The position numbers and the translations under genes are program-made. From Brucella haematophila (GTDB lineage: Bacteria > Pseudomonadota > Alphaproteobacteria > Rhizobiales > Rhizobiaceae), in the NCBI RefSeq assembly GCF_005938105.1, contig NZ_VCPE01000015.1, forward strand, positions 62,001 through 126,000: a DNA stretch of 64,000 nucleotides. The letters are read 5' to 3'. Positions 2,107 through 37,429 of this stretch are shown here, piece after piece. Under the pieces are notes generated by a model. It was not told the origin of the DNA, made no database searches, and saw only the letters and a program-made list of their open reading frames with translations. Every line of letters starts with the position of its first letter. Positions within the stretch are counted from its first letter, which is position 1.

Positions 2107-2574
2107 TCAATCAGAACGCACATTCTGATTGCGGCTGCGCTCCTGTGTCAGTTCAGCAGTGGTCTGGCCGAGCCGCTTCGCCAATTCCCGCATGATCGTG
2201 ACCGCCATTTCCGGGTAATCGCTGAGGATTTTCGTGAAATGCTCCTTGCTGATGCGCAAGGTTTCCAGCGGTGTCACCGCCCTCACCGTGGCGGTGCGTC
2301 CCATATCGCACAGAATGCCAATCTCACCGACAATGGAATTGGGCCGCGCTTCGGCAACCTTGATCGGCCCGCTGGGTGAATCGACCAGAATATCCGCGCC
2401 GCCCAAAAGGATCACATATGCAGCGTCAGACATGTCGCCCTGATGGAACAGTGTCTCACCGGGCTTGAAGGTCATGCGGTCGGAGGTGAAGGCGAGAAGC
2501 TTCAGCTTCGCTGGCTCTATACCGGCAAAGAACGGCATGCGCCGCAGCATTTCAACCTCATCCTTCAACAGCAT
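2107..2574 (-). CDS. stand-alone cyclic nucleotide-binding domain protein
   Basis: A 155-residue protein made of one CRP-like cNMP-binding domain. Landmarks are FKPGETLFHQGDMSDAAYVIL (beta roll), GEIGILCDMGRTATVRA (phosphate-binding cassette, with Glu and Arg at the positions that hold ribose and phosphate) and a C-terminal helix. There is no helix-turn-helix, so it is not a CRP-type transcription factor; it is more likely a regulatory subunit. It follows the degenerate ABC protein by 22 bases in the same operon. A nucleotidyl cyclase is encoded 5 kb away in the same locus. I infer that it couples a cyclic nucleotide to the ABC-like membrane protein. Confidence 0.85.
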   Translation of the reverse strand: MLLKDEVEMLRRMPFFAGIEPAKLKLLAFTSDRMTFKPGETLFHQGDMSDAAYVILLGGADILVDSPSGPIKVAEARPNSIVGEIGILCDMGRTATVRAVTPLETLRISKEHFTKILSDYPEMAVTIMRELAKRLGQTTAELTQERSRNQNVRSD

Positions 2575-2596
2575 CGATCTTCCCCTTCATCACGCT

Positions 2597-5311
2597 TTAC
2601 GACAGCAATTCCTTGAGCGGTCCATCCTCCTCCATCAGCACCTCATAGGCACCATCCTGAACCACTCGCCCGTGATCAAACACGATAACGCGGTCGAAGT
2701 CTCTGGCGAGAGAAAAATTACTCAATGCCCATATTATCGCGGGTTTATGACCCTCTTTATGCAGTGAGTGCATAATATTTCCCGCGATCTGAATCTGGAT
2801 GCGCTGATCCAGCGACGGCAACGGCCGATTGAACACCACATAATCGGCATGTTTGAGCAAAGCCCGAGCCATATTGATTTTCTGGCGCTGCACACTGGTC
2901 AGTCGCTTGCCACCCGAGCCGACATCAAAATCGAGGCCGATAATCAAGATGGTGCGCTGCTGGCCCAGATCCTCAAATAGATCGATGAGGATCGCCCGGA
3001 TTTTATCCGACGCGTTCATCTGGCCGTAGCTGATCTTGCCGAACAGCAGATTATCGAGAAGCGTGGCATGCTTGATGAAGCGGTCCGGCTCATAGGGCTC
3101 GATCACCGCGCGCAGATCCTTCGGCGTATCTCGCAGGAAGCGGGTCCGCGCGTTGACAATCTTGGCCTTCAAAGTGTCGGTCAAAAGGCCGAAACGATGC
3201 CGCGGCTCTATATAAGCAAAGCTGAGACGCACAATGTTGACGCGATCATCGTCCGATACCGCATCGACGCTGAGGCCCTTCACCCGCTGCAAAAGCGTCT
3301 CGTAATCGGGAATATCTTCCGGCCTCATAAAGGTCAGTTGCTGGAAGAAAGGATGATCCGGCGGCAGATCGCGGAAAAGCTCGATAGCATTCTGCGCGAT
3401 TTCGAGGCTCATAGCGTAAAGATCCGCAAGCAGGTCGTCCTCGCCGATCACCGCGCGGAAAAAGGGGTGTGCCGCCAGTTGCCGGATGGTCATAGAGGAG
3501 CGGTCGAGTACGCCGAACAACAGATTTTCACCCACCGTCGCCTGCGCATTATAGACATCCGGCTCGAAGGGTATGACGAGTTCGGCCATATCGCTGCCGT
3601 CAAGCCGCTGGCGCAGCGCCTGCCTGAGTTCCACGACGCGCTCTATGAATTCAGGATGAGCAACCGTATCGACCTTTGACAGAAGCGCTATATCGAAAAT
3701 GTCATGGGTCACCATCACCGCATCAAGAACAGGGCGCACAATGGCATAAAGCTCGTCGCGCCCCTTAATGCCCATCGCAGCATAATCGACCCAGTCGCTA
3801 TTGAGATCGAAATCGGGGTTTCGTGCACGGCGCGCCTCTGCGATTTGCCAGCGCCGCTTTACAGCGTCATCGCCCTCATAGGCGACCTTGGTCAGCGGGG
3901 CGTGTTTCAGCCCGTAGAGCAGATTGTCGCGTAGGGAACCACTGAAGAAATAACCGTCGCCCGATGCATAGGCGATGCGCCGCCCGGTGACGGATTCAGG
4001 TAATTCGAGAAGATCGTGACCGTCGATTGAGACCCGCCCGGCTGAGGGCCAGACGAGCCGACCGAGCAGTTCGGCAAACACATCGCTGCCACTGCCCGCA
4101 GGCCCGATCAACGCCACGGTTTCGGTCGGTTTCAACTCAATGCTGACATGTTCCAGAAGCGTTGCGCCGCTGTCATCCGGCACCGTGACATTGGTGACGA
4201 CCAGCGGCTGGTCGAGCGGGGAAACTGTATCGTACTGGACGGACTGTACCTTCGGATCGATCAGATTATCGACGCTGAACTGCTCAACGACCTGAGCATA
4301 TTTGACCTGCACATCCTGTCGGTTCTGGTCCCAGTCGATGAGTTCCTTGAGCGGACCAGGCAGGTCCTTGTAGGCGTTGATGACGGCGACGAGCTGGCCA
4401 ATGTCGAGCCGACCCTGAAGCGCCAACAGGCCGCCGATCATGTAGAACAGAAACGGCGTGACCTGCGCCAGGAAATTATTGATGAACTTGACCAGAAATT
4501 TCCACTGGTAGAGATCATAACGGATTGTGAAGATGTGGCCCAGACGGTGGGCAATATCGGCGCGCTCGAAATTCGACGTGTCGTTGCTGTGGATAGCGTT
4601 GATGCCTTCGACGATCTCGCCGACGCGGCCCGAAAGCTCGCGCGCTGACAGCTGGCGCTGGCGCCCCAGTTCCAGCAATCGTTTGCGCATCCGGGGAATG
4701 ATGATGCCCTGCGCGGCAACAATGATCGCGGCGATCATGCCGAGCCAGAAATTCTGCATCAGGATGAAGACCAGCGCCGTTACAGCCTGCCCCCCAAGAA
4801 GGGCCGGTTGTACAAAGGCATCACCGGTAAAGCCTCCGAGCGGCTCCACTTCATCCTTGATCATGGTGGCGATTTCTGCAGAACGCACCCGCTTGAAATG
4901 GAGGGGCGGAAACCGCAGCACCCGGTCCACCAGATCGAAGCGGATGCGGCGCAGCATCCGCTCCCCGAGCCTGCCCTTATAGGTATTGATGTAGAGCTTG
5001 AAGAGCCCGTTGATCACAACCAGCAGCAGGAACACCATGCTGAGGCCGATCAGCATCTGGACACGGGTAAGCTGCAAGCCACCGAAGAAGACCACCTCGC
5101 CCACGATCGGGAAATCATAGGTGATGCGCATGAAAGTCTGCGTAGCGCCCGGCTTCTCGAAACCTATGCCCTGAATGGGGCCATTGATGATCTGCTTGGG
5201 CAGATCGAATGACAGGAAATAGGGGATCATCGAAACGGCGACGACAAAGAGAATCCAGGCTTGCTGGGCGCGCGTCGTGGACCAGATATAGCGGGCTAGG
5301 TTTTTTTCCAT
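2597..5311 (-). CDS. ABC-exporter-like membrane protein with degenerate ATPase domain
   Basis: 904 residues. Residues 1-330 form an exporter-type transmembrane domain with about six helices. The nucleotide-binding domain starts near 370 but its catalytic residues are lost. The Walker A site at 403-410 is GPAGSGSD, with Ser for Lys409 and Asp for Ser/Thr410. The signature is LTSVQ (804-808) instead of LSGGQ. Walker B is YVVFNR with Asn828 and Arg829 for Asp-Glu, and the H-loop reads WALS. About 300 extra residues lie between Walker A and the signature. Within this stretch a Q-loop-like NLLYG/NLLFG segment occurs three times (463, 596, 754). ATP hydrolysis is unlikely. The gene sits between a methyltransferase and a cNMP-binding gene. 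The frame is open and long, so it is a maintained gene rather than debris. Confidence 0.85.
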   Translation of the reverse strand: MEKNLARYIWSTTRAQQAWILFVVAVSMIPYFLSFDLPKQIINGPIQGIGFEKPGATQTFMRITYDFPIVGEVVFFGGLQLTRVQMLIGLSMVFLLLVVINGLFKLYINTYKGRLGERMLRRIRFDLVDRVLRFPPLHFKRVRSAEIATMIKDEVEPLGGFTGDAFVQPALLGGQAVTALVFILMQNFWLGMIAAIIVAAQGIIIPRMRKRLLELGRQRQLSARELSGRVGEIVEGINAIHSNDTSNFERADIAHRLGHIFTIRYDLYQWKFLVKFINNFLAQVTPFLFYMIGGLLALQGRLDIGQLVAVINAYKDLPGPLKELIDWDQNRQDVQVKYAQVVEQFSVDNLIDPKVQSVQYDTVSPLDQPLVVTNVTVPDDSGATLLEHVSIELKPTETVALIGPAGSGSDVFAELLGRLVWPSAGRVSIDGHDLLELPESVTGRRIAYASGDGYFFSGSLRDNLLYGLKHAPLTKVAYEGDDAVKRRWQIAEARRARNPDFDLNSDWVDYAAMGIKGRDELYAIVRPVLDAVMVTHDIFDIALLSKVDTVAHPEFIERVVELRQALRQRLDGSDMAELVIPFEPDVYNAQATVGENLLFGVLDRSSMTIRQLAAHPFFRAVIGEDDLLADLYAMSLEIAQNAIELFRDLPPDHPFFQQLTFMRPEDIPDYETLLQRVKGLSVDAVSDDDRVNIVRLSFAYIEPRHRFGLLTDTLKAKIVNARTRFLRDTPKDLRAVIEPYEPDRFIKHATLLDNLLFGKISYGQMNASDKIRAILIDLFEDLGQQRTILIIGLDFDVGSGGKRLTSVQRQKINMARALLKHADYVVFNRPLPSLDQRIQIQIAGNIMHSLHKEGHKPAIIWALSNFSLARDFDRVIVFDHGRVVQDGAYEVLMEEDGPLKELLS

Positions 5312-5533
5312 GAAGTCCCGTTTTGAAATCGATGGCCCGCCGGGCCGTACTGCTATGGTGCCAACGCCGTCAATCGCTCTATATATACCTATGCATTTTG
5401 CGAAGCCTCCTCCGCTCTTGCCAGTATATTTCTAGTGCGTTTGCAGCAAAATGGAAGTATCTCGCGTCACATAAAGGCGGGATAAAAAGATTTCACGCAG
5501 CTACACGTTGCAGGCTGCCCGACGCCAGTGACC

Positions 5534-6013
5534 TTAACGACGGCGATATAGAAAATAGCGCTTTGCCGGGACGCTGTGCGGCACCGGCATTGGTGCCAAT
5601 TCCGGATGATCAAGCGGCAGCCCGCTGGCCGCAATACCACCTTGTTTCAACAAGTGTACCACGGCATCGGGTAACCATGTCAGCGTCATGGCGTCCAGAT
5701 CCTCATGGCCAGTGCCGATATCGGCATGCACAAGTGCGGCATCGATGCCGAAATAGTCACGAACCGTGTCCTTGATTTCACCCACCACGAGATTGTCGCT
5801 GTCAGGCGTCGAACTTTCGTAGGATTGCATCACGCGATCAAAGGCGATGATGCGGCGATCAAGGAACAACTCCCTGATATGATCATAAGTGCGGCCATTG
5901 CCAAGACCAAGTTCCATGATGTTGCCCGGGATCGCGCGCACATCGTCCGCAATGCTGTTCAGGATATCACGCTGGGCACAAAGACGGCGGATGAAACTGT
6001 CGAGACGACTCAT
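5534..6013 (-). CDS. class I SAM-dependent methyltransferase-like protein
   Basis: A 159-residue protein with the SAM motif IMELGLGNGRTYDHI (motif I), an acidic turn after RIIAFDR, ALVHADIGTG and a C-terminal hairpin ending KRYFLYRRR. The compact length and LGNGRTYDHLRE-type motif match the small S-adenosyl-L-methionine methyltransferase family seen in rhizobia and Brucella. The methyl acceptor is unknown. It is 54 bases downstream of the sugar-nucleotide dehydrogenase and about 220 bases upstream of the ABC-like gene, all on the minus strand, so a role in the same glycan pathway is plausible. Confidence 0.75.
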   Translation of the reverse strand: MSRLDSFIRRLCAQRDILNSIADDVRAIPGNIMELGLGNGRTYDHIRELFLDRRIIAFDRVMQSYESSTPDSDNLVVGEIKDTVRDYFGIDAALVHADIGTGHEDLDAMTLTWLPDAVVHLLKQGGIAASGLPLDHPELAPMPVPHSVPAKRYFLYRRR

Positions 6014-6067
6014 AATTTATTATTCCTGCATGATAACCGCGACCGCATTCCTCAAAAATGCGGCGCG

Positions 6068-7417
6068 CTATGCCTTGACAATATTGTCGCCGCTGATGCC
6101 ACGGCGTCCGAACGCATTTCGGGTGTCGACAATCAAAGGCGCCCAGTTGACCAGCGCCTGATAATCGATCTGATCGTGGTCAGTCGCAATCAGCACAGCG
6201 TCGAACTCTCTGACGGCTTCTTCGGTCAGTTCGACCGAGCTACGGCCACGCAGTTCGATATATTCGCGTGTTGACGGAATCGTCGGGACGAACGGATCGT
6301 GATAGGCCGTCGACCCTCCGCGAGCCTCAATCAGCTCGATAAGTTTCAGCGACGGGCTTTCACGAATGTCAGGCACATTCTTCTTATAGGCAAGTCCGAT
6401 GATCAGGACACGCGAGCGGCTGACAGCCTTGCCGTGTCGGCGGTCGAGCGCCTCGGCCAGCCGGTCGACGACATGGCGCGGCATGGCAGAATTAATCTCT
6501 CCGGCAAGCTCGATAAAGCGCGTCGGCAGTTCGTATTCGCGCGACTTCCAGGTCAGGTAAAACGGATCGATAGGAATGCAGTGGCCGCCAAGTCCCGGCC
6601 CCGGATAGAACGGCATATAGCCGAACGGTTTGGTCTTGGCAGCCTCAATCACTTCCCAAATATCGATGCCCATGGCCTCATAGACGACCTTCAATTCGTT
6701 GACGAGAGCGATATTGACCGCTCTGAAAATGTTTTCCGTCAGCTTGACCGCCTCGGCGGTTGCGTTAGACGAGACTGGGACAACAGTTTTGACCGCTGCG
6801 CCGTAGAAGGCCGTCATGAGCCGGGATGCCTCCGGGCCATCGCCTGCCACAATCTTCGGAATGCTCGAAGTTTCGAAATCGCGGTTGCCGGGGTCTTCGC
6901 GTTCCGGTGAGAAGCCTAGGAAGAAATCCAGGCCCGAACGCAGCCCGGTCTTTTCCAGGATCGGCCGCACCACATCATTCGTGGTGCCGGGATAGGTGGT
7001 GGATTCCAGCACGATCAGCTGACCCGACTTCAACGTCCGGGCAATCGCATCGCAGGTCTTGACGACGAAGGACAGGTCTGGATCCCGCTGTTTGGTCAGC
7101 GGCGTCGGAACACAGATGATGATAATATCGCAATCGCCAAGGCTCGCGAAATCCGTCGTTGCGCGGAAACGGCCCTCGCCGACATGACGCCCTAGCAGCG
7201 CATCGGATACGGATTCTATATAGGATTTGCTATCGTCAATCATGACGATCTTGCCGGGGTCTATATCGAAGCCAATGACACGAAACCCGCTATTGGCAAC
7301 GGTCATCGCCAGAGGCAGGCCAACATAGCCGAGGCCGATGACGCCCACGCGCGCCGAACGGTTAGCGATAGCCGTAAACAGGTTTCCGTGAAGCGGGGCA
7401 GAATCGGTCAAGATCAT
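6068..7417 (-). CDS. UDP-sugar 6-dehydrogenase (UDP-HexNAc type)
   Basis: A 449-residue nucleotide-sugar dehydrogenase that oxidises C6 of a UDP-sugar to a carboxylate using two NAD+. The Rossmann motif is VGVIGLGYVGLPLA near the start. The catalytic Cys lies in GPGLGGHCIPIDPFYLTW, whose IPIDPFYLTW tail resembles the WbpA/TviB (UDP-N-acetylglucosamine or -mannosamine) branch more than UDP-glucose dehydrogenase. The C-terminal domain begins around GLAYKKNVPDIRESP. I start at 7417 (MILTDSAP), preceded by GGAGAG. The longer frame to 7471 reads through a repeat (7436-7535) and is unlikely. It probably supplies a uronic-acid precursor to the glycosyltransferases of this locus. Confidence 0.88.
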   Translation of the reverse strand: MILTDSAPLHGNLFTAIANRSARVGVIGLGYVGLPLAMTVANSGFRVIGFDIDPGKIVMIDDSKSYIESVSDALLGRHVGEGRFRATTDFASLGDCDIIIICVPTPLTKQRDPDLSFVVKTCDAIARTLKSGQLIVLESTTYPGTTNDVVRPILEKTGLRSGLDFFLGFSPEREDPGNRDFETSSIPKIVAGDGPEASRLMTAFYGAAVKTVVPVSSNATAEAVKLTENIFRAVNIALVNELKVVYEAMGIDIWEVIEAAKTKPFGYMPFYPGPGLGGHCIPIDPFYLTWKSREYELPTRFIELAGEINSAMPRHVVDRLAEALDRRHGKAVSRSRVLIIGLAYKKNVPDIRESPSLKLIELIEARGGSTAYHDPFVPTIPSTREYIELRGRSSVELTEEAVREFDAVLIATDHDQIDYQALVNWAPLIVDTRNAFGRRGISGDNIVKA

Positions 7418-7435
7418 GGCTCTCCGGCAATTAAA

Positions 7436-7535
7436 GCGCATCCCGAAAAGTCTGGAACGGTTTTCTGACAAGATGCGCGTTAAAACAAAGCTTTAGAGCG
7501 CCTATCTGATTCAATCAGATCAAAACGCGCTCTAA
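7436..7535. repeat. mosaic palindromic intergenic repeat, copy 1
   Basis: Two adjacent hairpin modules. Module A, 7436-7478, is bounded by GCGCATC and GATGCGC and contains CCCGAAAAGT and GGTTTTCTGACAAG. Module B, 7493-7535, is bounded by TTAGAGCGC and GCGCTCTAA and contains the perfect palindrome ATCTGATTCAATCAGAT (7504-7520). Module A recurs at 19861 and 48951, and module B at 48750. This fits Rhizobiales/Brucella mosaic palindromic elements. It lies in the divergent region before the sugar dehydrogenase and cyclase genes. Confidence 0.8.
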
Positions 7536-7725
7536 TGTTCTTCAGTGGCGGATTTGCAGGCTGCATGTCAAGCGCGCTGCCTGACGGCAACGGCACGTTC
7601 AGCGAAAATCCTTCCTATTTTACTTTGGTGAAACTGGCTTTGCGGCTATTACACGCTATATTAGTCGGCGTGATTTGCTGACGACACGCCATGAAACGGT
7701 TGATGGCTGGAAAGACTAAAAAGCG

Positions 7726-9078
7726 ATGGATGTCCCCCGGGTTACGGTTTCTGAAACATTGCTCAGTCCAGTTTTATACTGGCTACAACAGTCCGCGCTG
7801 AACGGCGCAAGCCTCGAAACTCTGGCCGAAGGATTTTGCGACCAGCTCGCAGCGGCCGGTGTGCCGTTGATGCGCGTTCACTTGAGTTTTTCGATGTTGC
7901 ACCCGCTCTATGACGCGCTCGGCTTCACTTGGGTCCGTGGCAAGGGCATGGAAATCGAAGGTTTTCGCGCTTCGGCCAGCGAGAAGGATACGGAGCGCTT
8001 TCTGAACAGCCCCTATTTCTATCTTCTCAGCAATAACCTCCCGCATCTGCATCGTGAGATCAACCCTTCTATACCATCGGAATTCGCGGTTTTCGATGAA
8101 TTGAAGGAAATCGGTGCCACCGACTATCTCGCCTTTGTACACTCCTTCGGCGAGGGCGACAGTCAGGGTATGGTTGGTTCCTGGACGACAGATGTGCCGG
8201 GCGGCTTCGGTGATGACGTGGTCGAGACACTCCTGAAAATTCAGGACAGCCTTGCTATCGCGGCGAAGATGGCAGTGCTGGGCAAGCTGGCGGACAACGT
8301 GGTCACCACTTATCTCGGCAGCAATGCCGGCAAGCGCGTGTTGTCTGGCCAGATACGGCGAGGAGATGGGGAGACCATTCGCGCGGTACTCGTGATGGGC
8401 GACATGCGTCAATCGACCAATCTCGCCGACCAGGCTGGCAGGCAGGTTTATATCGATACCCTCAACGAGTTTTTCGACGCAATCGCGGCACCGTTCAACA
8501 AGAATGGCGGCGAAATTCTGAGTTTTATCGGAGATGGCTTCCTTGCCGCCTACCCTTGCGGACGTCATCGGGAACCGTCCGAGATTGCAGCCCGCGCGGC
8601 GATGGACGCAGTGCGGAAGGCCGCTGCGGCCATGACAGACATGAACAATGAGCGAAAGAGGAACGGCCTCGACGAAATTCGCTACGGGATGGGGCTGCAT
8701 GTCGGCAACGTCATGTTCGGCAATGTGGGTCTCAAGGACCGGCTGACATTTTCCACCTTTGGCAGCGCGGTCAATGAAGTGGCCCGGCTGCAGGGGCTGA
8801 CCAGGCTTTACCCCGACCATCCAATCATCGCCAGCGAGGCGTTCACCACCTATTCTGGTGGCAACTGGGTGATGCTTGGCGAGAAGAAACTGCGCGGTGT
8901 GCAGGAAAAGGTGACTATACTGGCGCCAGCCGCAGAAGACATGAAGTTGGGTAGCGTGGAGGCAACCGGCAAAAACAAGTCGGATGCAGGTTCGGAGGCC
9001 GAGCAGGTGATGCTGCTTTACCGCAATTCCCGCGAACAGAAAAAGCCCCGGAAACTTGAGGGGAACCTCATGCAATGA
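7726..9078 (+). CDS. class III adenylate/guanylate cyclase
   Basis: 450 residues. An N-terminal sensor-like region (about 1-190, no clear transmembrane segment) is followed by a class III cyclase domain (about 215-400). The two metal-binding aspartates are visible as Asp226 in GDMRQST and Asp270 in FIGDGFL, and transition-state Asn350 and Arg354 in SAVNEVARL. The base-selecting Lys/Asp pair is replaced by Ser266 (SFIGD) and Ser347 (FGSAVN), so ATP or GTP preference cannot be assumed. The domain should make cAMP or cGMP in the cytosol. It overlaps the lyase gene by four bases, so the two are translationally coupled. Together with the cNMP-binding gene at 2107 it suggests local cyclic-nucleotide signalling. 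Confidence 0.9.
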   Translation: MDVPRVTVSETLLSPVLYWLQQSALNGASLETLAEGFCDQLAAAGVPLMRVHLSFSMLHPLYDALGFTWVRGKGMEIEGFRASASEKDTERFLNSPYFYLLSNNLPHLHREINPSIPSEFAVFDELKEIGATDYLAFVHSFGEGDSQGMVGSWTTDVPGGFGDDVVETLLKIQDSLAIAAKMAVLGKLADNVVTTYLGSNAGKRVLSGQIRRGDGETIRAVLVMGDMRQSTNLADQAGRQVYIDTLNEFFDAIAAPFNKNGGEILSFIGDGFLAAYPCGRHREPSEIAARAAMDAVRKAAAAMTDMNNERKRNGLDEIRYGMGLHVGNVMFGNVGLKDRLTFSTFGSAVNEVARLQGLTRLYPDHPIIASEAFTTYSGGNWVMLGEKKLRGVQEKVTILAPAAEDMKLGSVEATGKNKSDAGSEAEQVMLLYRNSREQKKPRKLEGNLMQ

Positions 9079-10200: not shown

Positions 10201-12093
10201 ATGATCTCTGGTACGGATCTCTTGAGGATTGAAAATCTGAGCATTTCCTTCAGCCTGATGGGTGGGGAAATCATGGCTGTGAAAAAAGCGGATCTCCGTG
10301 TCCTGCCAGGCAAAGTCACGGCCCTGGTCGGTGAATCCGGTTCCGGAAAATCTGTTATAAGCCAGTCGGTTATGGGAATTCTGCCGCGTACCGCGTCTGC
10401 GAGCGGAAAGATACTTTTCCAAGACCCTGCTATGCCCGGCCAGCCGCCGGTCGACATTCTCAGCCTGCCGGTTGATGGTCCAGAAATACGAGCCTTGCGC
10501 GGCAGCCGTATCGGCAAGATTTTCCAGGAGCCGCTGACCTCGCTGTCGCCGCTCCACACGATCGGCAACCAGATTTCCGAAGTGCTGTCGATCCATACGA
10601 AAGATACAAAGGCCGAGCGGCGCGAACAGACTGAGCAAATGCTTGGCCTTGTCGGCTTTCAGAACCCGGCTCGTGCCTATGACAAATATCCGTTTGAGCT
10701 GTCCGGCGGCATGCGGCAGCGTGCCATGATTGCCATGGCGCTCATTTGCAAGCCATCACTGCTGATCGCCGACGAACCGACCACCGCGCTTGATGTCACC
10801 ATTCAGGCACAGATTCTTGAATTGCTGGGCGAGTTACGTGCCAAGCTCAATATGGCAATGTTGCTCATCACCCACGATCTGGGCGTCGTTGCCAATGTCG
10901 CCGACGAGGTCGTCGTGATCTATCACGGTGAGATCATGGAATCCGGGCCCGTCGAAACGATTTTCCGCAAACCAGCCCACCCCTATCTCAAGGGGCTGAT
11001 GGCCGCCGTACCGCATTTCGACATGAAGCCGGGCGAAAGACTGAAATCCCTGCGCGACGTGCCTGTTGATGTCACCAAGTTGATGGGGAAGAGCAAGGTC
11101 GTCAATGAGGACCGCAGCAATGTGCTGCTCTCCGTGCGCGACGTCTCCAAAACCTTCGCCGCTCGCAAAACCCTCTTTTCAAAAGATGACGGGCCGCCGA
11201 CACGCGCGGTCAATGATGTCAGTTTCGATGTCTTGCGCGGCGAATGCTTCGGTCTGGTCGGCGAAAGCGGTTGTGGCAAGACCACGCTGAGCAAGATTCT
11301 GATGCGCGCCATTACACCAGATTCCGGCTCGGTGACATTCAACGGTAACACAGGCCCGATTGATGTCCTTGACGCCAGCGGCAACGAGCTGCAATCGCTG
11401 CGTACCAAGATCCAGATGGTGTTTCAGGATCCGGTATCGTCGCTGTCGCCGCGTATGACGATCCAGAATATTCTCAGCGAACCGCTGGAAATCCACGGAC
11501 GCGGAAACGCCAAATCCCGGATGGACAAGGTATCCGACCTGATGGACGTCGTCGGCCTCAACCGGCGCTATCTTAAACGCTATCCACATGGTCTCTCCGG
11601 CGGCCAACGCCAGCGCGTCGGCATCGCGCGGTCCCTGGCGCTCGGCCCGGAACTCATCCTCTGTGATGAGCCGGTATCGGCGCTTGATGTGTCTGTGCAG
11701 GCGCAGATTCTCAACCTTCTCAAGGATTTGCAGAAGGAACTCGGGCTCACTTACATCTTCATTTCGCACAATCTGGCGGTGGTGGATTATATGGCAGACC
11801 GGATCGCCGTGATGTGTGCCGGGCGGATCGTTGAAATCGCTCCGCGCAGCACTTTGATGCGGTCACCTGTCCATCCCTATACGAAGTCGTTGCTTGCGGC
11901 GGTTCCATTTCCAGATCTCGACCGTCCACTCGATTTCGGCAAGCTGAGGGCCAGCGGCGCGTCCGACAAGCGCAACTGGGGCATCCAGTTCCGCAACGAC
12001 GGACCGGAAGACATGTTGACACCGACCGATCTGGGCAATGGGCACCTTGTGCTCGCGCGCAGGTCAGCAGATGTGCGGGAGTTGAGACCTTGA
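10201..12093 (+). CDS. fused double ATPase of peptide/oligosaccharide ABC importer
   Basis: A 630-residue protein with two complete DppD/DppF-type nucleotide-binding domains in one chain, as in YejF. The N half has Walker A GESGSGKS, signature [15 protein letters not shown] and Walker [13 protein letters not shown]. The C half has [24 protein letters not shown] and [12 protein letters not shown]. Both halves end with the HPYxKxL motif typical of the oligopeptide family. The start ATG follows AAGG at about 10188. It overlaps the binding-protein gene by four bases (TTGA). It energises the permeases at 13994 and 14989. All catalytic motifs are intact, in contrast to the ABC-like protein at 2597. 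Confidence 0.92.
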
Positions 12094-13991
12094 TCAACCG
12101 CCGCACTGCTCTGGGCATGCTTGCATCCTGTGTTCTGCCTGGTGTTTCGCAGGCGAGATCGTTTGACTGGAACTATTCCTTTCCGCAGCCGGGTGCTTTG
12201 GATCGGCTCGACACGGCCGACCGCCTGCCCAAAACGCCAAGGGTCATCAACATGGCAGCCCTTGGCCGAAAGCCCGGCGTCAATGGTGGCGTCATCCGGA
12301 CATTGATCGGCAACCAGAAAGATATCCGGTTGATGACGCTTTACGGTTATTCCCGTCTGGTCGGCTACGATGAAAAGCTCAACATGCATGCGGATATTCT
12401 CGAAAGCTTCGAAGTGATCGAGGACAGGGCCTTCACGTTCAAAATCCGCCCCGGGCATCGCTGGTCGGATGGGTCCTATCTGACATCGGAGGATTTCCGC
12501 TATTGCTGGGAAGACGTGATGCTCAACACGGAGCTGAAGCGCGGCGGCCCGCCGCGGGTCCTGCTTGTGAATGAAAGGCCACCACGTTTCGAAGTCATCG
12601 ACGAATTGACTGTCCGATATAGCTGGGATGCGCCCAATCCGGACTTTCTGCCGCAACTGGCTGCGCCACAGGCGCTGATGATCGTCCTGCCGTCAAAGTA
12701 CATGAAGCAGTTTCACAAGAAGTATCAGGACAATTTTCGACTGTCGGCATTGATGAAGCAATACCGCGTCAAGAAATGGGTTGATCTTCACTTCAATATG
12801 GCGCGCAGCTATCGTCCCGAGAACCCGGAGCTGCCGACGCTTGATCCGTGGCGCAACACGACCGCGTCTCCAGCAGAACAGTTCGTTTTCGAGCGTAATC
12901 CCTATTTCCATCGTGTCGATGAAAACGGCCTGCAATTGCCCTATGTCGATAAAGTGATTCTGAACATCAGTTCTCCGGCGATCATTGCCGCCAAGACAGG
13001 CGCTGGCGAAAGCGACCTGCAGGCGTACGGTCTTGATTTTTCCGACTACGCCTTTTTGAAGGATTCCGAGAAGCGCTTTCCGGTCAAGGTCAATTTATGG
13101 AAGCGTACAGAGGGCTCGCGGGTGAGCCTGCTGCCCAACCTCAACTGCGGTGATGCCACCTGGCGGGCGCTGTTCTGGGATGTTCGAGTGCGCCGCGCGC
13201 TGTCGCTCGCAATCGACCGGACCGAAATCAACAAGGCAGTGTTCTACGGGCTTGCCGTTGACAGCGCAAACGCCATCCTGCCCGAAAGCCCGCTGTTCAA
13301 ACCTGGATACAAGACTGCGTGGAGCGGGCACGACCCGGCCCAAGCGAACGCCCTGCTGGACGCCGCAGGCCTGCAAATGCGTGACGAGAACGGGATACGC
13401 CTGCTGCCCGACGGGCGCCCAGCAAAAATCGTGGTCGAGACTGCTGGCGAAAGCACGCTGGAGACAGATATCCTTGAGCTGATCACAGATCACTGGCTGG
13501 ATGTGGGCATCGCGCTGTTCATCCGGACATCTCAGCGTGACGTGTTCCGCAGCCGGGCGATGGGGGGTGAAATCATGATGGCAATGTGGTCTGGGCTCGA
13601 TAACGGTATCCCGACAGCCGACATGAACCCGGGCGAACTTGCCCCAACCTCGGACGACCAGCTGCAATGGCCGGTCTGGGGCATGTATTACATGTCGAAT
13701 GGGATGAAGGGCCAGCCTCCGGAAATTCCCGAGGTGAAGCAGCTTATCGCGCTTCTTGCCCAATGGCGGGATACCAGTGACATGACAGAACGCACCGGCA
13801 TCTGGACGCAGATGCTGGATATCTATTCACAGCAGGTATTTTCTATCGGCATCGTCAACAGCACGCCACAACCGATCTTGCGCGCAGACAGTCTCCGGAA
13901 TGTGCCTGACGAGGGACTTTACGGCTTCGACCCGACCAGCTTTCTCGGAGTTTTTATGCCGGATGCGTTCTGGTATGGTAAGGATGCCTGA
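12090..13991 (+). CDS. family 5 extracellular solute-binding protein
   Basis: A 633-residue periplasmic binding protein with a TTG start overlapping the previous stop. The N-terminus [10 protein letters not shown] is a twin-arginine-like signal, with cleavage probably after SQA. Family 5 features include the early GVNGGVIRTLIG, the RLVGYDEKLNMHADILESFEV and FKIRPGHRWSDGSYLTSEDFRYCWED segments, and DVRVRRALSLAIDRTEIN. This family binds peptides, but relatives bind oligosaccharides or nickel. The length is larger than DppA or OppA and resembles YejA-type proteins. Given the neighbouring lyase and glycosyltransferases, an oligosaccharide ligand is a fair inference, though not shown by sequence. 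Confidence 0.9.
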   Translation: MINRRTALGMLASCVLPGVSQARSFDWNYSFPQPGALDRLDTADRLPKTPRVINMAALGRKPGVNGGVIRTLIGNQKDIRLMTLYGYSRLVGYDEKLNMHADILESFEVIEDRAFTFKIRPGHRWSDGSYLTSEDFRYCWEDVMLNTELKRGGPPRVLLVNERPPRFEVIDELTVRYSWDAPNPDFLPQLAAPQALMIVLPSKYMKQFHKKYQDNFRLSALMKQYRVKKWVDLHFNMARSYRPENPELPTLDPWRNTTASPAEQFVFERNPYFHRVDENGLQLPYVDKVILNISSPAIIAAKTGAGESDLQAYGLDFSDYAFLKDSEKRFPVKVNLWKRTEGSRVSLLPNLNCGDATWRALFWDVRVRRALSLAIDRTEINKAVFYGLAVDSANAILPESPLFKPGYKTAWSGHDPAQANALLDAAGLQMRDENGIRLLPDGRPAKIVVETAGESTLETDILELITDHWLDVGIALFIRTSQRDVFRSRAMGGEIMMAMWSGLDNGIPTADMNPGELAPTSDDQLQWPVWGMYYMSNGMKGQPPEIPEVKQLIALLAQWRDTSDMTERTGIWTQMLDIYSQQVFSIGIVNSTPQPILRADSLRNVPDEGLYGFDPTSFLGVFMPDAFWYGKDA

Positions 13992-13993
13992 CC

Positions 13994-14992
13994 ATGCTGC
14001 GATACATCCTTTGGCGCATCGCAGCGATGATCCCCACACTAGTGATCATTTCAGCTCTGGTTTTCACCATCATAGAATTGCCGCCCGGCGACTACTTCGA
14101 AAGCTATGTGTCGGAACTTCGCGCCCAGGGTGAAGCCGTCGACATGCAGGAAATCGAGGAACTGCGCGTCCAGTATGGCTTTGATAAGCCGCCCGTGCTG
14201 CGCTATTTCCACTGGGTTGCAGGCATGCTGCAAGGCGATTTTGGCTATTCGTTCGAGTACCAGCTTCCCGTAAGCGAGGTGGTCGGCGACAGGCTGTGGC
14301 TGACGGTGATGGTGTCGTTCTTCACGATCATCTTCACCTGGCTGATCGCTTTCCCCATCGGCATCTATTCGGCGACGCATCAATATAGCTGGGCGGATTA
14401 CGGGCTGACACTCATCGGCCTGCTTGGCATTGCGATTCCTAACTTCATGTTCGCGCTGATCTTGATGTATTTCGCCAATATCTGGTTCGGCACCTCCATT
14501 GGGCATCTCATGGACCAGAAATATCTGGCCGAACCCATGAGTTGGGCCAAGGCATCCTCAATCCTCTCTCATCTGTGGATTCCGGTATTGATCGTCGGCA
14601 CTGCTGGCACCGCAGGCATGATCAGGCGTCTGCGCGCCAATCTTCTTGACGAACTGCAGAAGCAATATGTGGTGACGGCGCGCGCCAAGGGTTTGCACCC
14701 TTTCCGCGCATTGGTGAAATATCCCCTGCGCATGGCGCTCAACTTTTTCATCTCGGATATCGGCTCGATCCTGCCTGCGATCATTTCCGGCGCAGAAATC
14801 ACGGCAATTGTTCTTTCGCTGGAGACGACGGGGCCGATGCTCATCAAGGCCTTGCAAAGTCAGGACATGTATCTTGCGGGTTCTTTCCTGATGTTCCTTG
14901 CGACATTGACGGTGATTGGCGTGCTGATCTCCGATATCGCGCTCGCCTTTCTCGATCCGCGCATCAGGCTGCAAGGCGGAAGCACAAAATGA
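13994..14992 (+). CDS. ABC importer inner-membrane permease (DppB/OppB type)
   Basis: A 332-residue integral membrane protein with about six helices. The N-terminus MLRYILWRIAAMIPTLVIIS is typical of the DppB/OppB family, as are the periplasmic stretch LRVQYGFDKPPVLRYFHWV and the cytoplasmic coupling loop VVTARAKGLHPFRALVKYPLR (EAA-like). It lies two bases after the binding-protein stop and overlaps the second permease by four bases, so the importer is one operon. It forms the channel with the protein at 14989. Confidence 0.92.
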   Translation: MLRYILWRIAAMIPTLVIISALVFTIIELPPGDYFESYVSELRAQGEAVDMQEIEELRVQYGFDKPPVLRYFHWVAGMLQGDFGYSFEYQLPVSEVVGDRLWLTVMVSFFTIIFTWLIAFPIGIYSATHQYSWADYGLTLIGLLGIAIPNFMFALILMYFANIWFGTSIGHLMDQKYLAEPMSWAKASSILSHLWIPVLIVGTAGTAGMIRRLRANLLDELQKQYVVTARAKGLHPFRALVKYPLRMALNFFISDIGSILPAIISGAEITAIVLSLETTGPMLIKALQSQDMYLAGSFLMFLATLTVIGVLISDIALAFLDPRIRLQGGSTK

Positions 14993-16164
14993 CATCACCG
15001 CTTCCAGAACCCGGCGCGCCGCTGCCTCACTTTGTCTCGACAAAGCCTTTTGATCCGCATTCGGTGGATGTCATGACCGAGGAGCAAAACCGGCTCTATC
15101 GGGCATCACAGCTGCAATTGATGTGGTGGAAATTCAAAAAGCACAAACTGGCGCTCGCCTCCGCAATTTTCCTCGGCGCGCTTTATGTGATGATCGCTTT
15201 TGTCGAGTTTCTGGCACCTTATAATCTCCATACACGCAACGTCGACTTCATCTATAGCCCCCCGCAGGCCATTCGCCTTTTTCACAACGGTGATTTCATC
15301 GGACCTTTCGTCTATGGGCGCAAGATGACGCTCGATATGGACACGCTTCGACGCGTCTACGTGGACCAGAAAGACCAGATCGAGCCGCTGCGGTTTTTCT
15401 GCTCGGGTGATCGCTATAAATTCTGGGGCGTGGTCGCAACGGATGTCCACCTTGTCTGCCCCGCGAAAGGTGGGCAGATGTTTCTTCTCGGCACTGACCG
15501 GCTCGGGCGCGACGTGCTGTCGCGCATTCTCTACGGCGCTCGCATTTCGCTTACAATCGGCGTGATCGGCATCGTCATCAGCTTTACGCTGGGAATTGTT
15601 ATCGGCGGCCTTGCCGGTTACCATGGCGGAGTTTTCGACCTCATTGTCCAACGAATCATCGAAGTACTTCAGTCTATTCCCAGCATACCCTTGTGGATGG
15701 CCCTCGCCGCCATCATGCCTATTACATGGAGCCCAATGCTGATTTACCTCGGTATCACTGCCATCCTCGGACTGCTTGACTGGACGGGGTTGGCGCGCGC
15801 CGTGCGTTCCAAACTGCTTTCACTTCGTGAAGAAGATTATGTGCTCGCAGCCCAGTTGATGGGTGCAAATAGTCGCCGCATCATCGGGCGGCATCTCATT
15901 CCCGGCTTCATGTCGCACTTGATTGCGACAGCAACCATGTCTATTCCGGGCATGATCCTCGGTGAAACTGCGCTGAGCTTTCTCGGACTGGGACTGCGGC
16001 CACCTATCACAAGCTGGGGCATCCTTCTGACGGAAGCCCGCAGTGTAAGCGTGATCGTCTTTTACCCCTGGCTGCTGTTTCCGATCATTCCGGTTATTCT
16101 GGTGGTTCTGGCCTTCAATTTTCTGGGTGACGGTCTCCGTGACGTCGCTGATCCGTATAGTTGA
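14989..16164 (+). CDS. ABC importer permease (DppC/OppC type) with long periplasmic insert
   Basis: A 391-residue partner permease. After a cytoplasmic N-terminus (about 45 residues) and the first helix, an insert of about 100 residues (from HTRNVDFIYSPPQAIRLF to LVCPAKGGQMF) precedes the conserved LGTDRLGRDVLSRILYGARISL. The rest has the expected helices and the EAA loop YVLAAQLMGANSRRIIGRH. Typical DppC proteins are about 280-300 residues, so the insert is extra; comparable inserts occur in YejE-like and some sugar-importing members. It overlaps the previous gene (ATGA) and closes the importer operon. Confidence 0.9.
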   Translation: MTSPLPEPGAPLPHFVSTKPFDPHSVDVMTEEQNRLYRASQLQLMWWKFKKHKLALASAIFLGALYVMIAFVEFLAPYNLHTRNVDFIYSPPQAIRLFHNGDFIGPFVYGRKMTLDMDTLRRVYVDQKDQIEPLRFFCSGDRYKFWGVVATDVHLVCPAKGGQMFLLGTDRLGRDVLSRILYGARISLTIGVIGIVISFTLGIVIGGLAGYHGGVFDLIVQRIIEVLQSIPSIPLWMALAAIMPITWSPMLIYLGITAILGLLDWTGLARAVRSKLLSLREEDYVLAAQLMGANSRRIIGRHLIPGFMSHLIATATMSIPGMILGETALSFLGLGLRPPITSWGILLTEARSVSVIVFYPWLLFPIIPVILVVLAFNFLGDGLRDVADPYS

Positions 16165-16236: not shown

Positions 16237-17448
16237 ATGACGCGCCGGCTGGAGCATGTCCGCATCCTGATGTATAGCCACGACACGTTTGGGCTCGGCC
16301 ATTTGCGGCGCTGCCGAACGATCGCCCACTCGTTGGTCGAGGACTATCGCGGTCTCAATATCATGATCATATCCGGCGCCACGATCGCCGGTGCGTTTGA
16401 TTATCGCGCGCGTGTCGATTTCGTCAAAATTCCAAGCGTGATCAAGCTGCGCAATGGTGAATACGAGTCAATGGAGCGTCACACCGATCTTCATGACACG
16501 TTGAAGATGCGCCAGTCGATCATCCGCCACACGGCCGAAACGTTCCAGCCCGACATTTTTATCGTCGACAAAGAACCGATGGGCATGAAGGGCGAAGTCG
16601 AGGAAACACTCACCTATCTCAAGACCCGGGGAGCGATGTTAATCCTCGGCCTGCGCGAAGTCATGGACGCGCCGCATCTGCTCGACGCCGAGTGGAAACG
16701 CAAGAATGTGATGGACAAGATCGACAAGCTCTACGACGCAGTATGGGTTTATGGGCCGCCGGATTTCTACGATCCGCTGGTTGGTCTCGACGTTCCCAAG
16801 AGTGTCCGCGATAAAATGAGTTTCGTCGGCTTCCTGCAGCGCAGCGTCTCTGCCCATGAACTCCCGGACCATCGTCCCAAGGGCGACTACATTCTCGTCA
16901 CCACGGGCGGAGGTGGTGACGGCGCCGATCTCGTCAACGATGTCATACGGGCCTACCAGCACGATCACACGCTCCAGCACAAGTCACTCGTCGTGCTCGG
17001 ACCTTACATGCCTGCGAAAAAGCGCCGCAAGATGATAAGCAAGAGCAAGGCGATCCCCCATATTGAGGTCATCGAGTTCGACAACAGGATGGAAGAACTG
17101 GTGGCTGGCGCCAAGGCGGTCGTTGCGATGGGTGGCTACAATACCTATTGCGAGATCCTGTCCTTCGACAAGCCAGCGTTGATTGTTCCACGCGTCCTTC
17201 CGCGTGAAGAACAGTTGATCCGCGCCCGACGCGCCGCAGAGCTTGGACTGGTCGACATGTTGCTTCCGAGCGAATCCGAAGACCCCATTCGCATGGCCAA
17301 TGCGCTCAAAGCCCTGCCCAGCAGACCGGCGCCTTCCAAAAGTGCACTCAAGGGTTTCAGGCTCGAAGGCTTGCCGCATATCTCACAAATTGTCGGGGAC
17401 CTGATGGATCGACGTCAGCCGAACCACCTGTCACTCGTCAAGGGATAA
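16237..17448 (+). CDS. MurG/GT28-like glycosyltransferase
   Basis: A 403-residue protein of the GT-B fold. The N-terminal Rossmann half opens VRILMYSHDTFGLGHLRRC, a glycine-rich loop with HLRR like MurG. The C-terminal half holds ILVTTGGGGDGADLV, VVAMGGYNTYCEIL and PALIVPRVLPREEQLIRA, the donor-binding pattern of GT28-type enzymes that use UDP-sugars. It starts at an ATG preceded by GAGG, 72 bases after the importer operon. It is followed four bases later by a second glycosyltransferase. The acceptor is unknown; a cytosolic role in building the glycan of this locus is inferred. It is paralogous to the gene at 18682. Confidence 0.83.
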   Translation: MTRRLEHVRILMYSHDTFGLGHLRRCRTIAHSLVEDYRGLNIMIISGATIAGAFDYRARVDFVKIPSVIKLRNGEYESMERHTDLHDTLKMRQSIIRHTAETFQPDIFIVDKEPMGMKGEVEETLTYLKTRGAMLILGLREVMDAPHLLDAEWKRKNVMDKIDKLYDAVWVYGPPDFYDPLVGLDVPKSVRDKMSFVGFLQRSVSAHELPDHRPKGDYILVTTGGGGDGADLVNDVIRAYQHDHTLQHKSLVVLGPYMPAKKRRKMISKSKAIPHIEVIEFDNRMEELVAGAKAVVAMGGYNTYCEILSFDKPALIVPRVLPREEQLIRARRAAELGLVDMLLPSESEDPIRMANALKALPSRPAPSKSALKGFRLEGLPHISQIVGDLMDRRQPNHLSLVKG

Positions 17449-22655: not shown

Positions 22656-23474
22656 GTGTTTCGGGTGCGTTTTTGGGGAGTGCGGGGCAGTCTGCCGGTC
22701 TCAGGACCGGATTTCAGGCAGTATGGCGGCAATACTGTCTGCATCGAGATGCAATGCGGTGAACACAGATTGCTGTTCGATGCCGGATCTGGCCTGCTGC
22801 CTGCCGGAAAATCGTTGCTTGCCGAAGGCATTTCCAACTTCAAGCTGTTCTTTTCACACTGTCATTATGATCACATTATCGGCCTGCCTTATTTCGCGCC
22901 ACTCTTTGATGCCCGTTCGGCGGTGGAACTCTGGTCCGGGCATATGTACGGGAAGATGAGCACGAGCGAGATTGTTGCGGAATTTATACGCCCCCCGTGG
23001 TTTCCAATCGAAATAGACGTCTGCCCCGCAAAAATGATTTGTAAGGATTTTAAATCCGGCGACATTCTGAAACCCCATCCCGGTGTTGAGATCAGAACCG
23101 GAAGCCTCAATCATCCCGGCGGTGCAATCGGCTATCGCGTGCAATGGGGTGGACGTTCGGTAGCGCTTATCACCGATACCGAGCATGAACCGGGTATCCT
23201 CGATCCTGCCGTGTTGAGTCTGATCGAAGGCGTAGACCTTTTCCTCTACGACACCACCTATACCGATGAGGAAATGCCAAAGCATATCGGTTACGGACAT
23301 TCTTCATGGCAGCACGCTATCCGGCTCGCCAAGGCAGCAGGTGCGAAGAATGTGGCTTTCATCCACCATTCGCCGTTGCGCACAGACGCCGAGATCGAAC
23401 TGATCGACCGGCAAGCCGCTAGTCAGTTTGCAGGCGCCTTCTCAGCGCGGGAAGGTCAGACCTTCGACGTCTAA
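22656..23474 (+). CDS. MBL-fold metallo-hydrolase
   Basis: 272 residues. It opens VRFWGVRGSLPVSGPDFRQY and has the zinc motif SHCHYDHIIG (HxHxDH), a further His in SLNHPGGAIGYRV, Asp in ALITDTEHE and His in HHSPLRTD. This sub-family is found near PhnP/RNase Z-like and cyclic-nucleotide phosphodiesterase-like proteins. The start is a GTG at 22656 with AGAGAG upstream. It is divergent from the metallophosphoesterase and overlaps the convergent deacetylase by four bases. A role in degrading the locus's cyclic nucleotide is possible but unproven. Confidence 0.85.
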   Translation: MFRVRFWGVRGSLPVSGPDFRQYGGNTVCIEMQCGEHRLLFDAGSGLLPAGKSLLAEGISNFKLFFSHCHYDHIIGLPYFAPLFDARSAVELWSGHMYGKMSTSEIVAEFIRPPWFPIEIDVCPAKMICKDFKSGDILKPHPGVEIRTGSLNHPGGAIGYRVQWGGRSVALITDTEHEPGILDPAVLSLIEGVDLFLYDTTYTDEEMPKHIGYGHSSWQHAIRLAKAAGAKNVAFIHHSPLRTDAEIELIDRQAASQFAGAFSAREGQTFDV

Positions 23475-35487: not shown

Positions 35488-35529
35488 AGACAACAGTTCT
35501 TGGAACAATGGTTTGGTGATACGCGAGGA

Positions 35530-36003: not shown

Positions 36004-36032
36004 GGATAGCTCCCGCCTTTCGCGCATCGTTC

Positions 36033-36590: not shown

Positions 36591-36719
36591 TTCCGGGCCC
36601 TTCGAAATCCAAGTTTGCATTTCCCCGCCGAGTGACCACAGCAGCCTATAAAAGTGGATTGAAATAATCAAGATATATTTGGTTTCTTTTATCTGTTTGT
36701 TTTCGCAATATTTATCCGG

Positions 36720-37421: not shown

Positions 37422-37429
37422 CGGATCGC

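What the first reader, a model, noticed from the sequence alone, without database searches (positions are those of the whole stretch)
2107..9078. Pseudo-ATPase ABC membrane protein next to a cNMP-binding protein and a class III cyclase
Seen: the 904-residue ABC-exporter-like protein has lost the Walker A Lys, the LSGGQ signature, the Walker B Asp-Glu and the H-loop His, yet is intact. A stand-alone cyclic-nucleotide-binding protein follows it in the same operon, and a cyclase gene lies 5 kb away, separated by a UDP-sugar dehydrogenase and a methyltransferase. Inference: this could be a membrane machine gated by a cyclic nucleotide instead of ATP hydrolysis, acting on a glycan. I know of no described system of this composition.
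Basis: partly seen in the sequence, partly recalled or inferred. Interest (0 to 1): 0.75.

Follow-up and report, generated by a model that had tools for sequence, protein, structure and literature searches.

The report
ATPase-dead ABC protein in glycan locus
A membrane protein shaped like an ATP-driven exporter has lost its ATP machinery, is nearly always paired with a cyclic-nucleotide-sensing protein, and travels with a set of sugar-polymer genes, so bacteria may use it to control a surface sugar coat without burning ATP there.

Summary
The 904-aa protein (2597-5311 -) joins an exporter-type membrane domain to a pseudo-NBD without Walker A Lys, LSGGQ, Walker B Asp-Glu or H-loop His. None of 160 aligned relatives has all eight catalytic residues tested; 97 have none. 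Conservation is inverted: membrane domain 71%, NBD 50% identity, against 58% and 71% for canonical NdvA in the same 15 genomes. The pseudo-NBD holds three copies of the Q-loop/helical segment. A cNMP-binding protein is adjacent (58) or fused (8) in 66 of 66 full-length loci; a class III cyclase is near in 37 of 72 stretches but only 14 of 80 named contigs.

The locus is a glycan island, counterpart of the Sinorhizobium PPP (phazolicin-protecting polysaccharide) cluster. ABCx and an island glycosyltransferase share genomes: 69 both, 1 ABCx only, 81 neither of 151, often at distant loci.

Most likely: membrane subunit of a surface-glycan system, not powered by its own ATP hydrolysis, switched by a cyclic nucleotide through CNB. 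Association is shown; binding, gating and transport are inferred.

The parts
2107..2574 (-). CNB: stand-alone cyclic-nucleotide-binding protein (155 aa, no DNA-binding domain found)
   Evidence: PF00027 2.3e-18; phosphate-binding cassette Glu and Arg kept
2597..5311 (-). ABCx: ABC-exporter-like membrane protein without catalytic residues (904 aa)
   Evidence: PF00664 8.9e-17, PF00005 2.9e-9; motif tables
4277..5311 (-). ABCx membrane domain, residues 1-345; carries 56 of the 68 columns conserved at 95% or more
4082..4105 (-). degenerate Walker A (GPAGSGSD, residues 403-410)
3911..3943 (-). Q-loop/helical segment copy 1 (SGSLRDNLLYG, residues 457-467)
3512..3544 (-). Q-loop/helical segment copy 2 (QATVGENLLFG, residues 590-600)
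3038..3070 (-). Q-loop/helical segment copy 3 (HATLLDNLLFG, residues 748-758)
2858..2905 (-). degenerate signature (RLTSVQRQKINMARAL, residues 803-818)
2807..2845 (-). degenerate Walker B (DYVVFNRPLPSLD, residues 823-835)
2708..2734 (-). degenerate H-loop (IWALSNFSL, residues 860-868)
5534..6013 (-). SAM methyltransferase (PF12692), optional neighbour
6068..7471 (-). nucleotide-sugar dehydrogenase, optional near neighbour
7726..9078 (+). CYC: class III nucleotidyl cyclase
   Evidence: PF00211 2e-7; catalytic residues
9075..10040 (+). polysaccharide lyase (PF14099)
10201..12093 (+). fused double ATPase of an Opp/Dpp-type importer (two ABC_tran stretches, oligo_HPY)
12090..13991 (+). solute-binding protein of the importer (PF00496); co-occurs with ABCx
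13994..14992 (+). importer permease 1 (PF00528)
14989..16164 (+). importer permease 2 (PF00528, OppC_N)
16237..17448 (+). GTa: GT28-type glycosyltransferase; co-occurs with ABCx
17453..18700 (+). GTb: group 1/GT4-type glycosyltransferase
18682..19848 (+). GTc: GT28-type glycosyltransferase
20653..22419 (-). metallophosphoesterase of the island
22656..23474 (+). MBL-fold hydrolase, downstream of CNB in several relatives
23471..24217 (-). probable polysaccharide deacetylase (no Pfam match here; the relative in L186 is annotated so)
24217..25308 (-). GTd: group 1/GT4-type glycosyltransferase

Best explanation
ABCx is a membrane subunit, apparently indispensable, of a conserved alphaproteobacterial surface-glycan system (the PPP system of S. 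meliloti). It descends from a type IV ABC exporter, but its nucleotide-binding domain has become a non-hydrolysing pseudo-domain with two extra Q-loop/helical segments that serves as a docking or regulatory platform. The CNB protein (a separate subunit, or the C-terminal domain of the same chain) binds a cyclic mononucleotide, made in part of the family by a cyclase encoded nearby, and this switches the membrane domain between states that permit or block passage or assembly of the glycan made by the GT28/GT4 enzymes. Shown: loss of catalytic residues, inverted conservation, CNB linkage and fusion, cyclase enrichment in part of the loci, genome-wide co-occurrence with glycosyltransferase and importer genes. 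Inferred: absence of ATP hydrolysis, cNMP binding, physical CNB-ABCx contact, gating, and what is moved.
For: 0 of 160 aligned proteins keep all eight catalytic residues tested and 97 keep none; replacement residues are themselves conserved (Walker B D to N in 144 of 156, E to R in 126, Walker A T to E in 111). Membrane domain more conserved than either NBD half in 15 of 15 genomes, canonical NdvA (identified) the reverse in 15 of 15; 56 of 68 columns at >=95% lie in residues 1-345 (list). NBD-less relatives, closer to this family (43-49% identity) than to canonical exporters (19-22%), have no ABC_tran match. CNB adjacent in 58 and fused in 8 of 66 full-length loci, and found in 79 of 80 named contig loci. 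Phosphate-binding-cassette Arg in 149 of 150, Glu/Asp in 149 of 150. Cyclase in 30 of 56 selected stretches (about 8 kb each side) with 1.9 expected at background density, 5.5 at three times that; 37 of all 72. Co-occurrence with GTa: 69 both, 1 ABCx only, 0 GTa only, 81 neither; with the SBP: 68 both, 2 ABCx only, 0 SBP only; 27 genomes shared in the phylum sample. In 7 of 11 genomes with GTa far away or on another contig, a cyclase is still beside ABCx-CNB. PPP cluster mutants are phazolicin-sensitive (PMC10128002).
Against: No structure could be predicted, so CNB-ABCx contact is untested. Which nine of the PPP-region genes are needed is not in the text I could read, so a phenotype for the ABCx gene itself is not known to me. 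The cyclase is not within reach in 26 of 56 selected stretches, 35 of all 72, and 66 of 80 named contigs (mostly Rhizobium); in the one R. leguminosarum record seen it lies 10 kb off. The cyclase lacks the canonical base-selecting Lys and Asp (both Ser here), so its product and even its activity are open. The cyaA gene that the PPP paper links to phazolicin is another, chromosomal cyclase (smc00339) and its mutant changed the MIC only twofold. Six relatives keep the Walker A Lys; two (L162, L163) keep Walker A Lys-Ser and Walker B Asp-Glu, and L154 keeps Walker B Asp-Glu, so ATP binding in some members is possible. In 23 of 61 stretches no homologue of the window's GTs or deacetylase is present. 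Divergent and NBD-less relatives (5 of 6 examined) have no CNB beside them.
Confidence: 0.57

Rival explanations
1. Scaffold, not a gate: the dead exporter is a membrane platform that holds the cytosolic glycosyltransferases at the inner membrane; the CNB senses cNMP to assemble or release them; the glycan leaves by another exporter.
For: No other recognised glycan exporter or polymerase was found among the 19 island-region proteins scanned; the large variable insert and triplicated segment would suit protein docking.
Against: The most constrained part is the membrane domain, not the cytosolic part; NBD-less relatives keep the membrane domain alone.
Confidence: 0.25
2. ATP binding without hydrolysis, or with a partner, still drives it: the pseudo-NBDs bind ATP through remaining contacts, or ABCx pairs with a canonical half-transporter encoded elsewhere.
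For: L162 and L163 keep Walker A and B; six relatives keep the Walker A Lys; the signature helix Gln is kept in 144 of 156.
Against: 97 of 160 keep none of eight residues; no second exporter-type gene with intact motifs among the island proteins scanned, and the co-occurring importer has BPD_transp_1-type permeases.
Confidence: 0.13
3. A Pycsar-like anti-phage pair: the cyclase makes a cyclic pyrimidine and the CNB-ABCx membrane pair is the effector.
For: PADLOC PycC models hit the cyclase (4.1e-16) and Pycsar effector models hit the CNB (1.2e-17); base-selecting residues are non-canonical.
Against: Those hits fall on the shared cyclase and CNB folds; ABCx has no PADLOC match; co-occurrence is with glycan and importer genes.
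Confidence: 0.03

Closest known systems
PPP (phazolicin-protecting polysaccharide) cluster of Sinorhizobium meliloti pSymB, smb21252-smb21271 (PMC10128002; abstract, passages and part 1 of section 12 read)
   Same: Same island: dehydrogenase, cyclase, importer, GTs, ABCx, CNB in one stretch of NC_003078 and L187. Anchor: SMb21257 is printed as a truncated adenylate cyclase (PMC12542648, one passage), matching the short cyclase frame found there.
   Different: The paper treats the locus as polysaccharide genes; the passages read do not mention a dead ABC exporter or its CNB partner. Gene numbers for ABCx and CNB are not known to me; their place inside the numbered range is inferred from gene order.
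Canonical type IV ABC exporters (NdvA/ChvA, MsbA)
   Same: Membrane domain (PF00664; MsbA and ChvA profiles match below cut-off)
   Different: No catalytic motifs, triplicated Q-loop segment, inverted conservation, CNB partner
NBD-less membrane domains in copper-resistance loci of Phaeobacter, Sulfitobacter and Thalassospira plasmids
   Same: Same membrane-domain clade (support 0.993 against canonical exporters)
   Different: No ABC_tran match; copper genes as neighbours; no CNB within L164, L166
TIGR03896 cNMP-binding protein associated with bacteriocin-type transport
   Same: A CNB protein tied by its name to transport; weak match to CNB here
   Different: 41.5 bits against a cut-off of 161; its partners being peptide exporters is recalled, not tested
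Second-messenger control of polysaccharide export (Bcs, Alg, Pel; recalled)
   Same: Would share the principle: a nucleotide messenger switches a membrane glycan machine
   Different: Those use c-di-GMP, PilZ or GGDEF receptors and synthases (recalled); none of these domains was found in the 19 island-region proteins scanned

Membership tests
Type IV ABC exporter | ABC_membrane domain | tested here: met
   PF00664 8.9e-17
Type IV ABC exporter | Walker A Lys, LSGGQ, Walker B Asp-Glu, H-loop His | tested here: not met
   all absent in the window protein; 0 of 160 aligned proteins complete
Type IV ABC exporter | NBD more conserved than the membrane domain, as in the control | tested here: not met
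   71 (membrane) vs 50% (NBD halves); NdvA control 58 vs 71%
Type IV ABC exporter | ATP-driven transport | not testable with these tools
   needs biochemistry
Cyclic-nucleotide-binding domain | PF00027 fold and phosphate-binding-cassette Glu and Arg | tested here: met
   PDB relatives by sequence include 5d1i and PKA regulatory subunits
Class III cyclase | two metal Asp, transition-state Asn and Arg (positions recalled) | tested here: met
   alignment, window protein
Class III cyclase | canonical base-selecting Lys and Asp (recalled) | tested here: not met
   Ser and Ser here; other residues in the relatives aligned
S. meliloti PPP system | same gene set in one island | tested here: met
S. meliloti PPP system | makes a surface polysaccharide that shields from phazolicin | not testable with these tools
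   proposed for S. meliloti from Tn-seq and two GT mutants; untested in this organism
Pycsar | PycC cyclase plus CNB-TM or CNB-TIR effector | tested here: inconclusive
   cyclase and CNB hit Pycsar models through shared folds, ABCx does not
ABC-dependent capsule export (KpsMT/Wzm-Wzt) | separate exporter permease plus intact ATPase for the glycan | tested here: not met
   the only intact ATPase/permease set among the 19 island-region proteins scanned is Opp/Dpp-importer-like

The most novel reading that the evidence does not exclude
A cyclic-nucleotide-gated, ATP-hydrolysis-free glycan translocator: an ABC exporter that replaced its ATPase engine with a cNMP sensor, so that passage of a surface glycan is opened by a cyclase instead of by ATP. 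NBD-less relatives in copper loci would be the same membrane domain working with no nucleotide domain at all.
Probability: 0.28. Interest if true: 0.92.

Novelty: new variant of a known kind. Interest (0 to 1): 0.74.

Why it matters
ABC exporters are the textbook ATP-driven pumps. A large family that lost the engine, kept its membrane domain under the strongest constraint and gained a cNMP sensor would be a bacterial parallel to CFTR or SUR, where an ABC protein became a channel or a regulator (recalled). It would also show post-translational control of a surface glycan by a cyclic mononucleotide rather than c-di-GMP. The PPP coat is proposed to shield S. meliloti from a peptide antibiotic and its genes rise under predation (PMC10128002 and PMC10315480, passages), so the hypothesis is testable at once in a laboratory strain.

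Tried and rejected
Degeneracy as a local pseudogene: rejected, frames without internal stops in the rows listed down to 29% identity and conserved replacement residues. CNB as a DNA-binding CRP: no second domain found in 155 aa. Pycsar: see rivals. Neighbourhood as coincidence: rejected by co-occurrence at unlinked loci. A PDB relative for the insert (residues 475-735): nothing credible.

Counting choices. My longest-first gene calling undercounts genes in GC-rich loci, as shadow ORFs win; I used tblastn and ORF-level HMM counts instead. One search printed 54 adjacent, 8 fused, 10 none of 72. Five of the ten (L111, L113, L114, L148, L179) have the CNB domain just behind ABCx in an ORF whose called start overlaps it, and I count them as adjacent; one printed as adjacent (L167, divergent) has only a CNB-bearing frame 1.0 kb away, and I do not count it. 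L164-L169 are NBD-less or divergent, which leaves 66 full-length loci, 58 adjacent and 8 fused (the 8 fusions come from 6 genomes). The 56 stretches leave out short stretches, second loci of a genome, most same-genus repeats, divergent loci, and L117 without good reason; the full set of 72 gives 37. The two sets of 72 are not the same loci. Four genomes in the phylum sample (G178, G289, G297, G416) match only the NBD half and lack GTa; four others (G154, G249, G392, G476) have only weak GTa relatives (31-35% identity); both groups stay in the counts as discordant. Thresholds for co-occurrence were E 1e-60 and 1e-40 (ABCx), 1e-40 and 1e-30 (GTa), 1e-100 (SBP). Relatedness of genomes is not corrected for in the Fisher and binomial figures; within genera g1, g73, g111 and g112 both states occur and full-length ABCx and GTa change together.

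Papers: Perry and Newman 2019 not held; Zou 2017 (PMC5498481, passages) concerns a neighbouring cluster, nodP2-smb21248, and its main text holds none of the tag prefixes smb2125, smb2126, smb2127, so its cAMP link does not reach this locus; PMC6858071 (one passage) is a different CNB/ABC pair. Searches for print on this system; none of the listings names the ABCx-CNB pair.
Full report
WHAT IS THERE. The window lies in a 5.5 Mb alphaproteobacterial draft genome whose nearest named relatives at this protein are an unnamed Rhizobiales isolate (98%) and Ochrobactrum/Brucella species. The stated genes are present at the stated places. The 904-aa protein, ABCx, has a type IV exporter membrane domain and an NBD split by about 300 extra residues. 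Two canonical exporters of the same genome keep 8 of 8 tested catalytic residues; ABCx keeps none.

FAMILY. ABCx was found in 70 of 151 genomes of its family and 31 of 398 of its phylum, all 31 within its class; four of these match only the NBD half. Of 160 aligned proteins (155 family rows and 5 set apart as divergent or fused; identical sequences removed), none has all eight residues, 97 have none, the highest score is five. The substitutions are consistent rather than random: of 156 rows, Walker B Asp is Asn in 144, Walker B Glu is Arg in 126, the Walker A Thr is Glu in 111. So this looks like a pseudo-NBD kept for another purpose.

INTERNAL TRIPLICATION. Profile-profile alignment of three segments of the pseudo-NBD shows three copies of the Q-loop/helical stretch (motif xATxxENLLFG): copies 2 and 3 match at 1.6e-14, 1 and 3 at 5.7e-8, 1 and 2 at 3.6e-6; they can be seen, weaker in the most distant members, in the rows printed, which are part of the alignment. 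The insert finds nothing credible in the PDB by sequence.

WHERE SELECTION ACTS. Over 15 genomes the membrane domain (residues 61-345) averages 71% identity to the window protein and the two NBD halves 50% each; NdvA, the glucan exporter (NF010178 above cut-off), in the same genomes gives 58% and 71%. NdvA passed my threshold in 15 of the 25 genomes searched, so the comparison is limited to those. In a non-redundant set of 70 proteins, 68 columns are conserved at 95% or more and 56 of them lie in residues 1-345. A side branch has no NBD: 393-489 aa membrane domains in copper-resistance loci, 43-49% identical to a member of this family and 19-22% to canonical exporters, inside the family clade (support 0.993), with no ABC_tran match in the five tested (L164, L166, L210, L211, L212). 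Two of the plasmid records nevertheless call the gene an ATP-binding protein, and the plasmid gene tables are incomplete, so a partner ATPase elsewhere is not excluded. The membrane domain is therefore the part under most constraint, and it can persist without its own ATPase domain.

THE CNB PARTNER. Among 66 full-length loci, CNB is just downstream in 58 and fused to the C-terminus in 8, from six genomes. Of six NBD-less or divergent loci, five show none and one has a CNB-bearing frame 1 kb away. Among the 80 named contig loci CNB is found in 79 (L060 is the exception). The cassette Arg is kept in 149 of 150 and Glu (134) or Asp (15) in 149 of 150 (the set is the best CNB hit of each locus and holds some fused sequences twice). 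Fusion makes physical partnership likely; it is not proof.

THE CYCLASE. A class III catalytic domain lies in 30 of 56 selected stretches, about 8 kb each side, and in 37 of all 72. Genome-wide density in 25 relatives is 2.2 per Mb (282 PF00211 matches in about 128.8 Mb), which predicts 1.9 of 56; at three times that density 5.5. My locus search used a profile built from these cyclases, so the two counts are not strictly alike, and related genomes are not independent. Among the 80 named contigs (9 kb each side) only 14 have one, all in Ochrobactrum/Brucella, Phyllobacterium or Rhizobiales isolates (with the names); in the one R. leguminosarum record seen, the cyclase is 10 kb upstream. Arrangements differ (upstream or downstream, either strand, 11 bp to 6 kb), which suggests repeated linkage. 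In this window's genome it is the only PF00211 match at E <= 1e-4. The metal Asp pair and transition-state Asn/Arg are present, but the base-selecting Lys and Asp are both Ser, so cAMP, cGMP or another product cannot be told.

THE ISLAND IS A GLYCAN LOCUS. Downstream in the window lie a polysaccharide lyase, an Opp/Dpp-type importer with fused ATPases, three glycosyltransferases, a metallophosphoesterase, an MBL-fold hydrolase, a probable polysaccharide deacetylase and a further glycosyltransferase. Phyllobacterium carries nearly the same set in one run with ABCx-CNB behind the glycosyltransferases; S. meliloti has dehydrogenase, cyclase, importer, glycosyltransferases, ABCx and CNB in one run, and so has R. 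leguminosarum; Azospirillum and Sulfitobacter have ABCx beside importer and GT genes.

CO-OCCURRENCE. In the same 151 genomes GTa is present in 69 and the SBP in 68; every genome with either has ABCx. G053 (88% complete) has ABCx without GTa or SBP, and G089 (about 770 contigs) has ABCx and GTa without the SBP; 81 have none of the three at these thresholds. In the phylum sample of 398, 27 genomes have both ABCx and GTa; the 4 ABCx-only are the NBD-half matches and the 4 GTa-only are weak matches. I picked fourteen genomes in which the two lie on different contigs (9; these are drafts) or 0.7-5.1 Mb apart on one contig (5), so linkage alone does not explain it. In 7 of the 11 of these that one search covers, a cyclase is still beside ABCx-CNB, so there the cyclase tracks the CNB module rather than the sugar genes.

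WHAT IS IN PRINT. Travin et al. 2023 (PMC10128002; abstract, passages and part 1 of section 12 read) report that nine genes between smb21252 and smb21271 are needed for an uncharacterised surface polysaccharide that protects S. meliloti from phazolicin, with two GT mutants tested; they suggest that cAMP may regulate it, and a chromosomal cyclase gene, cyaA (smc00339), is depleted in their screen, with a small MIC change in the mutant. PMC10315480 (one passage) reports seven of the nine up-regulated under Myxococcus attack. The region of pSymB with ABCx and CNB holds the same genes, and SMb21257, printed as a truncated adenylate cyclase (PMC12542648, one passage), matches the shortened cyclase frame found there. 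I found no paper describing the dead exporter or its CNB partner (searches listed under Tried and rejected).

HOW IT MOST LIKELY WORKS. Cytosolic GT28/GT4 enzymes build a glycan (inferred from families). No other glycan exporter was recognised among the 19 island-region proteins scanned. The membrane protein that co-occurs and whose membrane domain is most constrained is ABCx, whose engine appears dead. A cNMP binds CNB and sets the state of ABCx, opening or closing passage or assembly of the glycan. The linkage steps are shown; the binding, contact and gating steps are inference. A scaffold role is the main rival.

LIMITS. No structure model. Counts across related genomes are not independent. 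Whether the ABCx gene itself is among the nine PPP genes is not known to me.

Noticed in passing
L164, L166, L170, L210, L211, L212: NBD-less membrane domains of this family sit in copper-resistance loci (multicopper oxidase and CopB or other copper proteins beside most of them); no ABC_tran match in the five scanned.
   Followed up: partly
window 10201-16164: The Opp/Dpp-type importer's SBP co-occurs with the glycosyltransferase and ABCx in 68 of 70 genomes; an importer tied to glycan synthesis is itself unexplained.
   Followed up: partly
L193 (NC_003078 815000-852000): In the S. meliloti 1021 reference both the cyclase and the ABCx gene differ by one base in length from strain RCAM1750 and read as shortened frames; strain 2011 has the full ABCx length. 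Sequencing error or real is open.
   Followed up: partly
window 25572-27680; L190 2065-4440: A mechanosensitive-channel protein lies beside the island here and among the island genes in Sulfitobacter.
   Followed up: no
L220 2229-2690 (own genome, C12): A second stand-alone CNB protein, resembling PDB 5d1i by eye, lies beside a response-regulator-like frame; apparently unrelated to the island.
   Followed up: partly
window 34576-42821: Substrate-binding protein, sigma-factor-like, phosphopantetheinyl-transferase-like, monooxygenase-like and NRPS-like reading frames in a row look like a siderophore cluster (by eye).
   Followed up: no
genomes G009, G094, G113: ABCx membrane domain 72-74% but pseudo-NBD part 51% identical, reported as two separate matches in one frame.
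   Followed up: no
L060: A short contig (7.2 kb) of Rhizobium sp. BK376 carries a second ABCx copy without a CNB gene behind it, while L030 of the same strain has the usual pair.
   Followed up: no
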